This document shows, one piece after another, positions 20,877-28,170 of a DNA stretch of 64,000 nt (its first letter is position 1; each line of letters opens with the position of its first letter). Made by a program: the position numbers and the translations under genes. The DNA is from Dioszegia crocea (taxonomy: Eukaryota; Basidiomycota; Tremellomycetes; Tremellales; Bulleribasidiaceae), in contig BCKK01000008.1 in NCBI GenBank assembly GCA_001600615.1, positions 1,098,134 to 1,162,133 of the forward strand. Reading direction: 5' to 3'. Under the pieces are notes generated by a model. That model saw nothing but the letters and a program-made list of their open reading frames with translations. It made no database searches and had not been told where the DNA came from.

Positions 20877-21343
20877 ATGAGCGAAGACTCTGCACCGACG
20901 ATCGAAATTACAGATGCTCCTGCGGCCGTTATCCGTGCTAAAGAAGGGTGGAACAGCTTGAGTTCAGCAGGAAAAGCTAGTGAGTCGAGGTATACGATGA
21001 TATTTTCGCTGAAATGATGCCTATTGCTGACGCCACAGGTGTTGGATTCGCTATCGCCGCTAGCATCCTCTTCCTCATCTCACTCTGTATCTGGCTCTTC
21101 CGATGGAAACGCCGCAGATGGCCATTTCAAGACCGATGCGCCGAATGCCGAGAGCCGAAGGATCTCACCAAAATGATGGTGCGCGCAAGCAGTAAAGAAG
21201 CAAAGATATTCCCCATCTCACAAGTATTCTGCTGTAGGAAGCGGAATCCTAATGAATGGGTGGCGGTGTATTTTCACGATACTTGCCTGGACAAGAAGCG
21301 GAAGTTGGAAGGATCTGATCCTGAGAAGAGAGATGAGAGTTGA
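20877..21343 (+). CDS. Membrane-anchored CxxC protein, tandem copy A
   Basis: Exons 20877-20979 and 21039-21343; 135 aa. N-terminal ~34 residues polar (MSEDSAPTIEITDA..), then one hydrophobic helix at about residues 36-56 (VGFAIAASILFLISLCIWLF), then RWKRRRWPFQDRC. Two Cys in C-X2-C (68 and 71, RCAEC), a CC pair at 99-100, then VYFHDTC with His114 and Cys117, and a charged tail. A phase-1 intron enters directly before the helix, as in copies B and C. With no signal peptide before the helix and a basic stretch after it, the Cys part is probably cytosolic (inference). The C-X2-C plus H-X2-C set could bind one zinc ion. No known family recognised. Head of a three-gene array. Confidence 0.72.
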
Positions 21344-21790
21344 GGCCAGGGACGGATGAAGATGATTGGTGCGGGTTGATAGGACTTCTGTGATGTACGA
21401 ACTTTTGAGAAGGTGATGCATGGGATAGGACGAAGTGGAAAGGTGAGGAACGCACGGGAGGAAGAAGATGAGGGACTCCGTAAAATCTACGATTGTCAGA
21501 TCATGTGCCAGGCTGGGCAAGGCTAGTGACAGTGTCTACATCAGTCCTCAAGACTTCATAACGGGAGCTGGTGTTCATCAGCTCAATCTGGCATGGGAGC
21601 GTGCCAAGTTGATTAGACGTACCTATACCTAGTCCTTTGAGTCAGCTCTCCGTGCTGGAGCTCCTGTATCCCTGTGCATCACCCTGAATTGCCATTGGGC
21701 TCAATCTGAAGACACTCAGGGACGCGTCTCGTCAAGACGAAATCGCTGCTTTCTATGCCTGCAACAACTGCAAGTCAGTGTTCAAGAACG
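21344..21790. other. Spacer between tandem copies A and B
   Basis: 3' flank of copy A and promoter of copy B. No ORF or RNA recognised. Confidence 0.4.
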
Positions 21791-22571
21791 ATGATGAGCC
21801 AAACACTCCCAGACGATGTCTCCGCGCCGGGGATCTTGCAGCAAGCAGCATCATACAAGGAAAGCCTTCCTCAAACGACGGTGATTGGTGCGTACAGCGT
21901 ACTTGCTGACTCTCATACGGTCTTTTAAGCTGACTCGACTTACAGGTATAGCAGTAAGCGTCGGTATCGTCTTCCTCCTCCTCGTCACGGCCGTTGTATT
22001 GATGTTCCTTCGGGGCATATTTTTGTCTCAACACCGGTGCGAAGTTTGCGGTCATCGCTGCAACAACAAGGTCTCAGTGTACAATATGGACGACCGAGAG
22101 TGGCACAACCCAATCCAAACGGCGAATGGCTCTTCACAAATTTGGCTCTGTAAGGGGCCATTGTGCGATGCGAGGAACTGGTGGCAGCTAGTGTTTGTGG
22201 GGAAGTCTCGAATGAAGAAGGAATTCAGAAGGATAGAGTCAAGGTCGTATCGTACATTGACAAGAGAACAGCGTTCTGAGGATCAGAGATGTATCGATGC
22301 TTACCGTAGATGCTCGAGGGGGAGTCCGATGATCTGCTTGTACATACGTGATCCGACTCAGCCGAGGTCAACAGATATTACAGTCCGGCCGCCAGAGCCG
22401 TCAACGGAATTGAGGGCATCCACTGAGAGCTCATATACCGGCAGCGCCAGACGAGATACAAAACCGGGGTACCTTTCACTTTCCGTCCTGACTCCTGAGA
22501 TATCCTTTGATCAGATATCCCTCATGTATGTATCGCTGTCGGGACGAGCACATTTCAGAGGACCGAGATAG
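21791..22571 (+). CDS. Membrane-anchored CxxC protein, tandem copy B
   Basis: Exons 21791-21887 and 21946-22571; 240 aa (Met at 21791 or 21794). The N-terminus is polar (MMSQTLPDDVSAPGILQQAA), and the phase-1 intron falls at IG, before helix residues 34-54 (IAVSVGIVFLLLVTAVVLMF). After it come LSQHRCEVCGHRC (Cys64, 67, 71) and later IWLCKGPLCDAR, matching the His/Cys pair of copies A and C but with Cys in place of His. This copy has an extra ~100-residue Ser/Thr/Arg-rich tail (RMKKEFRRIESRSYRTLTRE..). The extension could contain an unrecognised intron, but the frame is open to the TAG at 22569. No described family recognised. Confidence 0.68.
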
Positions 22572-22655
22572 TTTTAGGCAGCTCCATCGACCCACCAGCA
22601 GCAAACATCCACATTGTCTGCTCTTGACTTTTGACTCTACCGAAATCAAACAGGA

Positions 22656-23144
22656 ATGAGCGATGGAGCACCCAATGTTAACGGCAACACGCCATCTTAC
22701 ATTGAACGGGCGCAAGCATACCTGGGCGGACTGACCAACATACAGACAGCAGGTAAGTCTTGGCTGCGCCTTCAGTGTGCAAGCTCTTGCTGACTTCCAG
22801 GGATCACCCTCGGTATCGTCCTTGCCGTCATCGTGGTCTGCGCGATCTCCGCTTTGATTGCCAAATTCGGTCGATTTCCATGGCAGCACCGCTGTGTCAA
22901 CTGCGGGAAGCCGACGGGGAATCAGGAAATGGTCGCTAAATCAAACTTGGATCGCGGCACGAAATCCACTCATACCGCTAACGAAGAAGAGGTCAAAGTG
23001 TATTATCACCTCAACTACTGCGATACACGAAGCCTTAAACAAGTGTTACTGAGGGCGGATAAGGAAAGGTGGACAGACAAGACAGGGAGAGAGAAGAAGT
23101 GGGATCCATACTTCCGCGAGCGTCCGCCGTGCCCCTGGTGCTAA
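22656..23144 (+). CDS. Membrane-anchored CxxC protein, tandem copy C
   Basis: Exons 22656-22752 (97 nt, the same length as in copy B) and 22801-23144; 146 aa. Layout as in A and B: polar start (MSDGAPNVNGNTPSYIERAQ), phase-1 intron at AG/I, helix about residues 34-54 (ITLGIVLAVIVVCAISALIA), linker KFGRFPWQHRC, C-X2-C at 64/67 (RCVNCGKP), then VYYHLNYC (His102, Cys106) and a basic tail ending PPCPWC. WPFQDRC in copy A and FPWQHRC here show that the three share a common origin. The function is unknown; a metal-binding cytosolic head on a membrane stalk is my inference. Confidence 0.72.
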
Positions 23145-26105: not shown

Positions 26106-26603
26106 TGTTTAGGTTGGGTACGTTGGCTGGTTGGTGGGTGAGTGGTGCTAGTTGAGTTTAGTGTAGTGAGATGTATGCATGGAGATGTTTGCGGAGGATA
26201 TATAATGAGGCGGGCTGAAGGGTCAGTTGATCACCTGCGTTCATGCTCGCGTCACTTGACAGATCTCAGATCTCAGATCTGCGTCTGCCAAACATCAATG
26301 TGCCTTACTCTGGCCATCTGGTAGCTTGCCGCACATTCCGTGCCTCGGTGCCTGGTCGAGCACTATCAAGTCCAAGGCAAAGCCTTTAACTGACGAGAAT
26401 TACCCACTGCCGGCGGATATGCCTGGACTCAAGTGAGACATGTCGTCAGTAGGAACGTGGATCAGCACATCAGTACAGCCTCATTATACCCAGACATCAA
26501 CGACAGACACGCCTGACGTTGGACCGTACTGCATACCGGCGCCAACAGCGAAATGCAGCTGGTCATCTCCCATTAATTCCACCCAATCTGCCTCCATCCC
26601 TCA
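26106..26603. other. Intergenic, promoter of the small secreted protein
   Basis: Contains the minus-strand TATA box and a perfect triple 7-mer (CAGATCT)x3 at 26260-26280. Otherwise the 3' flank of RPN8. Confidence 0.45.
26198..26206 (-). promoter_or_regulatory. TATA box
   Basis: Reads ATTATATAT on the minus strand, about 95 nt upstream of the start codon of the 77-aa secreted protein. Confidence 0.45.
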
Positions 26604-28170
26604 CTACTTCTTCTCCTTCTTCTCATCTTCCTCCTTCTTCTCCTTTCTGGCCTTTTCGACATCCTCCGCTTTGACACCCGCGGCCATAGCTGCTGCTTCT
26701 GCCTTTTTCTGTTCGGGCGTTTTGGCATCGTCTAGTTCTTGAAGGGCCATTTGGATACGGTTATCGACTGGAAATGTCAGCTTTGTTTCATTTGTCAAGA
26801 CCAGTCGCCCTCCAAACCTTCCCGCTTCAATCTCTTCTGTAGCCCGAGACTCGTCCTTCAATCCAGCATATCCTGCCTAGTCCCTTCAACCCACACCTCA
26901 GACCAAAACCACACTTTTCACCTCGCCCAACCCCCCCCGCAAAGAAAACCAAGACTCACTCAAATCGTGCAAAGCCAACACAGTCCTAACCAGCGCACTC
27001 AGATAGACCACCATGGAACTATCATTCACCCCCACCCTAAACGCCTTGCCCAACTCAGCGTCCCCGCCCAACTGAGGCAAAAGCCCCACAATCTCCTGCA
27101 CCTGACTAATCACCTGATGGTTGATTGGCATCTTCCCAGCTCGGACTCGATCGAGGTACTCGCCAATATCTGCCAGTCGGGCGTGCAGACCGCGCAGGGC
27201 GGACAATTGGGTGGTGACGCGCGTAGAGAGTGATTGGGTCGTGAGGAGTGAAGAGGATGGTGCACCTGAAGAAGAAGCGACGTCTCGGAGTAGGTGCTCC
27301 ACTCCGATTTCTTCTGCTTCTTCCGCTTCGATAGTCGTGGGGATGTGGGTGAATGTACGTTGGGTAGCAGTTCCGTCCTGGACATTAGCTTGGGTATGAG
27401 ATCATAGTAGAGAGACTTACATCTCGAATCTCTTCGACGGCAAAGTATGCGTCTGTGGGGATTCCAGTCTCGCCTCGACCACCCGTACTTCTCACATCTA
27501 CAATGACCATGACGGGTCGATCGCAGAATCGGCGCATGAGGTCGCTGATTTCCAAATCGGAAGATCGGAGGCGGGGTCCAGAGTGGTAGAAGCCGACAGG
27601 GCGTTCTTTGGCTGGAAGAATCAGCTTAGATTCGAACATTCAACAGTTCCAACGAAGCTGTGAGAGATACGTGAAGGGGTAGAACCCACCGTTGACTTTC
27701 CGGAACATTCTCCACATTTCTTCAATGTAGTCCAGGTCCAAAAAGAACGTCTTTGGATCCCGATCGTCCTCTTCGAACGGGACGGCAAAGCTGTACTATC
27801 AGCTAATGAAACGAATCAAGCGCCATAATCAGCTGAAGCGCGAGGACTTGAGAAACAACCTACGAATTAGCCACATTGATGATGCCCCCATTATCCTGCC
27901 CGAGCAAAATACCCAACACTCTCTTATTCCGTGAAAGCGGAACTCGCGAGGCGTGATCGACGACGGAAAGAAGGACAAGGGGGTGAATCACACTATAAGA
28001 GTCAGCTTGATGATCCTCCATCAGTCCGGTCAATCCAGCTAATCAGGTTGACCTACACATTGACGGAAGAGAGAGCGGTGACCTGAAGGATTCGTCAGCT
28101 CGTTGTTCGCCTAATTTCGGAGAAGTAGGACGAGGAGGAAGCTTACCTGTGCTGTTGTCAATCCAGGCAT
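26604..28170 (-). CDS. RPN8: 26S proteasome regulatory subunit Rpn8 (PSMD7)
   Basis: About seven exons, starting MPGLTTAQ at 28170. The MPN domain reads [99 protein letters not shown]. The His-x-His part of the JAMM zinc site is absent (FYHSGP), as is normal for Rpn8, so it is a non-catalytic partner of Rpn11 in the proteasome lid. Next come [35 protein letters not shown] and [19 protein letters not shown]. The last exon encodes a Lys/Glu-rich tail ([13 protein letters not shown]) typical of the family. The introns carry regular GTNNGT donors and close CTGAC branch sites. Confidence 0.93.

What the first reader, a model, noticed from the sequence alone, without database searches (positions are those of the whole stretch)
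20877..23144. Tandem triplet of membrane-anchored CxxC proteins with a shared exon plan
Three consecutive plus-strand genes (20877, 21791, 22656) encode proteins with the same order: ~34 polar residues, one membrane helix entered through a phase-1 intron in exactly the same place, a basic/aromatic linker (RWPFQDRC, FLSQHRC, FPWQHRC), C-X2-C, then a second metal-like pair (H-X2-C, C-X4-C, H-X3-C). Only the architecture is conserved; the loops and tails differ strongly and copy B has a 100-residue extension. That suggests fast divergence under a structural constraint, possibly zinc or redox. I know no named family like this. What they do, and whether they act together, is unknown.
Basis: partly seen in the sequence, partly recalled or inferred. 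Interest (0 to 1): 0.75.

Follow-up and report, generated by a model that had tools for sequence, protein, structure and literature searches.

The report
Three tandem membrane-anchored Cys/His proteins
Three neighbouring genes of a basidiomycete yeast appear to be old, strongly diverged copies of one small membrane protein that carries a probable zinc-binding knot of cysteines and histidines beside the membrane, and the searches made here matched them to no known family.

Summary
Three plus-strand genes (20877-21343, 21791-22571, 22656-23144) splice to 135, 240 and 146 aa: phase-1 intron, one membrane helix, Q[HD]RC-x2-C, then H-x2-C, C-x4-C or H-x3-C. They are paralogs: B and C align gaplessly over 126 residues (0 of 20000 shuffles); in their module, codon positions 1 and 2 are conserved while position 3 is at chance; exon-1 ends match in register. 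A is tied in mainly through C. The window is most likely from a Dioszegia yeast (one gene, Rpn8, 97% to D. hungarica). The protein database holds Tremellales, yet A and C found no relative (B not searched); Pfam and NCBIfam gave nothing near a cut-off, PDB nothing convincing. Best reading: an orphan family of single-pass membrane proteins with a cytosolic, zinc-stabilised Cys4/Cys3His docking module. Zinc, topology and function are inferred; the structure models are too poor to show a site (pLDDT 56-57). Silent sites of B/C are saturated, so the duplication is old; 'fast' divergence is not shown. B's long tail is unproven.

The parts
20877..21343 (+). Gene A, two exons (20877-20979, 21039-21343), 135 aa
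   Evidence: the start is the only ATG of its open frame ahead of the intron
20980..21038 (+). Gene A intron, phase 1, 59 nt
21041..21097 (+). Gene A membrane helix, residues 36-54, KD 2.53
21137..21148 (+). Gene A C68-x2-C71
21275..21286 (+). Gene A H114-x2-C117
21791..22571 (+). Gene B, two exons (21791-21887, 21946-22571), 240 aa; tail beyond about residue 126 unproven; an earlier in-frame ATG lies at 21755
21888..21945 (+). Gene B intron, phase 1, 58 nt
21954..22010 (+). Gene B membrane helix, residues 36-54, KD 2.95
22038..22049 (+). Gene B C64-x2-C67
22149..22166 (+). Gene B C101-x4-C106
22656..23144 (+). Gene C, two exons (22656-22752, 22801-23144), 146 aa, ends in CPWC
   Evidence: the start is the only ATG of its open frame ahead of the intron
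22753..22800 (+). Gene C intron, phase 1, 48 nt
22803..22859 (+). Gene C membrane helix, residues 34-52, KD 2.98
22893..22904 (+). Gene C C64-x2-C67
23007..23021 (+). Gene C H102-x3-C106

Best explanation
The three genes are an old tandem triplication of one small single-pass membrane protein. A short N-terminal segment with a conserved P-x5-A-x6-L run ends at the intron; a helix anchors the protein; about ten residues past the helix a Cys4 (B) or Cys3His (A, C) module begins. Most likely the N-terminus faces the lumen or cell exterior and the module faces the reducing cytosol, where it binds one structural zinc ion in a treble-clef-like or zinc-ribbon-like knot and serves as a membrane-side docking surface for a protein partner. 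The copies have kept anchor, spacing and ligands while their surfaces diverged, so they probably hold different partners or form a mixed complex. Shown: open frames with a common gene structure, homology, selection on the protein (B, C), a CxxC in all three. Likely but not settled: the second pair as a common feature. Inferred: zinc, topology, fold, docking role, joint action.
For: Gapless B/C homology over 126 residues, 0 of 20000 shuffles. Codon-position identities 29/30/12 of 62 between B and C; 12 of 17 shared residues use different codons. Exon-1 ends in register, 0 of 2000 for the triple. Same intron phase and place. Positions C64, C67, C106 have identical numbers in B and C; A has C68, C71, H114, C117. 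Exchange of His and Cys between copies (A H114, B C101, C H102) suits metal binding better than a disulfide or thiol catalyst (inference). Net charge of the 15 residues after the helix is +5/+1/+3 against +1/0/0 before it (A/B/C), which favours a cytosolic C-terminus. The low-confidence model of A has a hairpin and then a helix starting at H114 (exon-2 residue 79), the order of a treble clef (fold knowledge recalled).
Against: Models are poor (pLDDT 56.0, 56.8) and disagree: the model of C puts its second pair in a strand and has no helix there. The spacing of the second pair varies (x2, x4, x3); four alignments pair A's C99/C100 with C106 instead (two, do not); a B/C profile does not extend into A's second half. 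A/B likeness alone is weak. B has only a weak charge bias. Codon usage is neutral for all three. No expression data.
Confidence: 0.5

Rival explanations
1. The module lies in the secretory lumen or outside the cell and its cysteines form disulfides or act as a thiol-redox site (CxxC; copy C also ends in CPWC).
For: C-x2-C is also the redox motif of the thioredoxin class (recalled); copy C ends in CPWC; B shows almost no charge bias (+1 after, 0 before).
Against: His stands in place of Cys at the second pair in A and C, which would break a disulfide pairing; charge bias of A and C points to a cytosolic C-terminus; no redox family was listed by Pfam at E up to 10; terminal CPWC is absent from A and B.
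Confidence: 0.2
2. The gene models are incomplete: B and C, only 84 nt apart, or all three, belong to one longer transcript or have further exons, so the proteins are larger than drawn.
For: 84 nt between the B stop and the C start; an acceptor-like ACAG lies just before the C start; the tail of B has the least gene-like codon scores; four Dioszegia genomes average 5.4-6.2 exons per gene (PMC9713403 Table 1, section 13 read) against two here.
Against: Each copy has an ATG in the corresponding place, the only one ahead of the intron in the open frame of A and of C (B has one more upstream), and exon 1 itself looks homologous among the copies, as expected of three separate genes.
Confidence: 0.2
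3. They are decaying relics rather than working genes.
For: Neutral codon usage; very low identity; no relative of A or C found in the protein database.
Against: Three intact frames and splice sites; in B/C the third position is at chance while first and second are conserved (0.0004 and 0.0002 of codon shuffles), the mark of long selection on the protein.
Confidence: 0.05
4. Copy C, and so the family, is a relative of ribosomal protein eS26, whose RCxNC and YCxxC zinc site it resembles.
For: Best PDB sequence match of C is an eS26 (E 0.14 and 0.17); against this genome's own eS26, 26 of 2000 shuffles reach the score.
Against: A (225 of 2000) and B (1358 of 2000) show nothing; the E-values are at chance for a search of 177635 sequences; the second Cys of eS26's YCxxC is missing in C.
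Confidence: 0.03

Closest known systems
Single-zinc treble-clef fingers such as zf-PARP (PF00645) and LIM fingers (PF00412)
   Same: A C-x2-C pair followed, after a hairpin-length stretch, by [HC]-x(2-4)-C; a LIM chain is the top PDB profile match, but only at E 1.2 and only around the CxxC. Works like: plausible.
   Different: Anchored by a membrane helix; 42, 33 and 34 residues between the pairs in A, B, C (from the positions); neither family was listed by Pfam at E up to 10. Membership not shown.
Ribosomal protein eS26 (PF01283)
   Same: RCxNC and a YC-containing strand in copy C
   Different: Copies A and B do not resemble it; half of its second knuckle is missing; similarity at or near chance level
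LITAF/CDIP-type membrane zinc ribbons (recalled, no call)
   Same: Small membrane protein with a cytosolic Cys/His zinc site
   Different: There the hydrophobic stretch lies between the two Cys pairs (recalled); here the helix lies before both

Membership tests
zf-PARP (PF00645) | Pfam profile match | tested here: not met
   Not among the families listed at E up to 10 for whole proteins, modules or exon-2 parts (HMMER's filters drop most weak matches)
zf-PARP (PF00645) | C-x2-C-x28-30-H-x2-C ligand spacing (recalled) | tested here: not met
   A x42 H-x2-C, B x33 C-x4-C, C x34 H-x3-C (positions)
LIM (PF00412) | Two zinc fingers, eight ligands (recalled), profile match | tested here: not met
   Not listed by Pfam at E up to 10; at most four ligands are shared by the copies; a LIM chain in PDB at E 1.2
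eS26 (PF01283) | Sequence homology including the second CxxC | tested here: not met
   no second CxxC at that place in any copy
Thioredoxin-class redox proteins | Profile match | tested here: not met
   None listed by Pfam or NCBIfam at E up to 10
Thioredoxin-class redox proteins | Redox-active CxxC in a thioredoxin fold | not testable with these tools
   Models of pLDDT 56-57
Single-zinc treble-clef fold in general | Four ligands close in space in a knuckle-hairpin-helix fold | tested here: inconclusive
   The order is seen in the poor model of A only, not of C; Foldseek found no PDB chain for the model of A

The most novel reading that the evidence does not exclude
A protein family restricted to Dioszegia or near relatives, with a metal-binding fold of its own, whose three old paralogs sit together because they build one mixed membrane complex with a zinc-held cytosolic face.
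Probability: 0.15. Interest if true: 0.5.

Novelty: new variant of a known kind. Interest (0 to 1): 0.35.

Why it matters
Small tandem genes without any database relative are easily dismissed as noise. Here codon-position conservation, intron register and ligand plan show a real protein family that routine searches do not link to anything, nor to each other: own-genome searches with exon 2 of A, C and B found each copy itself and no sister copy. If the zinc reading holds, it is a compact membrane-tethered Cys/His module in a yeast genus known from cloud water and leaf surfaces (abstracts of PMC9713403 and PMC6597690, the latter as shown in the listing). The interest is modest until a function or orthologs are known.

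Tried and rejected
Paralogs elsewhere in the genome: protein searches with exon-2 parts of A, C and B found themselves, plus for C one weak match at E 1.55 that I take for chance (its open frame printed). The pattern for Q[HD][RS]CxxC gave 20 hits and that for H[RS]CxxCG 21 hits against 8 for the reversed control. Only our copies show a helix upstream in the same frame: by eye; by hydropathy, where 14 of the 21 had no 19-residue open frame upstream and so could not be scored. A profile of the three against 1370 open frames of the window found the three it was built from (next best E 0.19). In the same call a scan for a hydrophobic stretch before CxxC gave a fourth frame, 26577-26732, a leucine-rich low-complexity stretch without the rest of the plan. 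Viral and prokaryote contigs: 38 and 31 pattern matches, none confirmed.

Protein database: A, 10 word-sharing candidates, none at E up to 0.01; C, 6 candidates, none at E up to 1; B was not searched, the third search went to the control. The control, Rpn8 of the same window, gave 4216 proteins, 120 listed; of the first 28 rows 26 bear a name, all of them Tremellomycetes (class by my knowledge). The database needs shared 5-residue words, and A, B and C share none among themselves, so relatives under about 50% identity may be missed.

Literature: six searches, capped listings seen only; nothing on such a family in what was listed. PMC9713403: abstract and sections 7, 13 and 14 read. eS26 kinship rejected. 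Cryptococcus amylolentus as source, my first guess, dropped after (its Rpn8 is 82% identical). Rfam and tRNA scans of the window: nothing. (donor-motif scan) led nowhere.

Full report
What is there. Each has one short intron with GT-AG ends and CTGAC motifs, in phase 1, after codon 34 (A) or 32 (B, C). Behind it comes a 19-residue stretch of hydropathy 2.53, 2.95 and 2.98, then RWPFQDRC, IFLSQHRC or RFPWQHRC, C-x2-C, and a second pair: H114-x2-C117, C101-x4-C106, H102-x3-C106.

Is it more than chance? Yes. The DNA pattern for Q[HD][RS]CxxC occurs 20 times in the 20.57-Mb genome against 7 for the reversed pattern, three times within 1.8 kb here; of the 20 translations, read by eye, only these three follow a hydrophobic segment. 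H[RS]CxxCG gives 21 sites against 8; 7 of the 21 had enough open frame upstream to be scored, and only B and C exceed a hydropathy of 0.81. B and C align without any gap over residues 1-126 with 25 identities; 0 of 20000 shuffles reach the score, whole or within segments. Local alignment of whole proteins: A/C 0, B/C 0, A/B 6 of 1000 shuffles; of the parts behind the helix: A/C 1, B/C 0, A/B 591 of 1000. So A joins the family mainly through C. The 20 residues before the intron align in register in all three (0 of 2000 for the triple; A/C 67, B/C 109, A/B 1600 of 10000 for pairs), which supports exon 1 and the intron place.

Are they coding? In the B/C module the codon positions agree at 29, 30 and 12 of 62; the third is at chance while 12 of 17 shared residues use different codons. 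That is long selection on the protein with saturated silent sites, hence an old duplication. The shorter A/C stretch gives 14, 15 and 12 of 26, with the third position slightly above chance (0.022), and A/B 11, 9 and 9 of 26, little above chance (0.03, 0.21, 0.19). Against coding, the codon usage score is neutral for all three (-0.005, -0.044, -0.013 bits per codon), below each of the seven reference frames that I chose and trained on (0.015 to 0.225). The tail of B beyond about residue 126 has no counterpart, the lowest codon scores, and an openness that 6.8% of sampled frames of that length share; it may hold an unseen intron.

Whose genome? An Rpn8 gene of the window, spliced by hand, matches Dioszegia hungarica at 97% (288 of 296 columns, one gap) and next Saitozyma at 87%. 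The window's G+C is 52.9%, and the assembly has 20.57 Mb in 17 contigs. Table 1 of PMC9713403 gives 57.2% and 20.96 Mb for D. hungarica, 53.2% and 20.60 Mb for D. crocea, 53.6% and 19.34 Mb for D. aurantiaca. A Dioszegia near D. crocea or D. aurantiaca is likely; this rests on one gene and on composition, and the species is not proven.

Relatives. With that control the empty results mean something: the database holds D. hungarica, Saitozyma, Kwoniella and Cryptococcus proteins, yet A and C find nothing. Limits: shared 5-residue words are needed, candidates must be of similar length, gene callers may miss such small genes, and B was not searched. Orthologs under roughly 50% identity may be missed (estimate). 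Pfam listed only unrelated families well below their cut-offs (best Med24_N, E 0.039), NCBIfam one at E 0.11. PDB sequences: A best E 0.28, the profile 1.2, a LIM chain, around CxxC only, C 0.14, an eS26 (0.17). The B module reached E 0.0053 with a designed propeller, as the sum of six weak repeat matches of about 20-30 residues, none significant alone; I do not take it for kinship. The eS26 likeness of copy C is not shared by A and B.

How it may work. The His/Cys exchange at one place of the second pair, with Cys kept at the other three, is what zinc sites tolerate and disulfides do not (inference from general knowledge). The charge behind the helix (+5, +1, +3) favours a cytosolic module. 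The model of A has a hairpin and a helix beginning at H114, but at pLDDT near 50 there; the model of C shows strands only. Both models were built on three-row alignments that pair A's C99/C100, not H114/C117, with C106 of B and C. So a treble-clef-like zinc module is a reasoned guess, not a result. On the pairing itself the alignments differ: two runs chose H114/C117, four chose C99/C100, and a B/C profile reached only the CxxC part of A. I prefer the first, because it keeps the strand V-x-[VI]-[YW]-x, the [HC] and the D after the last Cys together; it is not settled. The most likely role is a membrane-side docking module; a lumenal disulfide or redox protein is the main rival.

Verdict. A real, old, tandem family for which no known relative was found; ordinary in kind (small membrane-anchored Cys/His proteins), new in sequence. 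Interest moderate.

Noticed in passing
window 22572-22655: Only 84 nt separate the stop of B from the start of C, with an acceptor-like ACAG just before the C start; C's promoter must overlap B or the two share a transcript.
   Followed up: partly
window 23130-23141: Copy C ends in CPWC, a second CxxC at the very C-terminus, absent from A and B.
   Followed up: no
window 26910-28170, minus strand: Proteasome subunit Rpn8, 97% identical to Dioszegia hungarica over the part compared; it points to the genus of the window.
   Followed up: yes
L026, L030, L039 (G000 C1:255700, C1:2735599, C4:1640082): Three places give the same translated stretch around HRCKSCG, so probably a dispersed repeat or mobile element in this genome.
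   Followed up: no
window 26577-26732: A leucine-rich open frame with a hydrophobic stretch before a CxxC, the only other such frame in the window; it lacks the rest of the plan.
   Followed up: no
window 12638 and 13224: Two unresolved bases (N) in the window.
   Followed up: no
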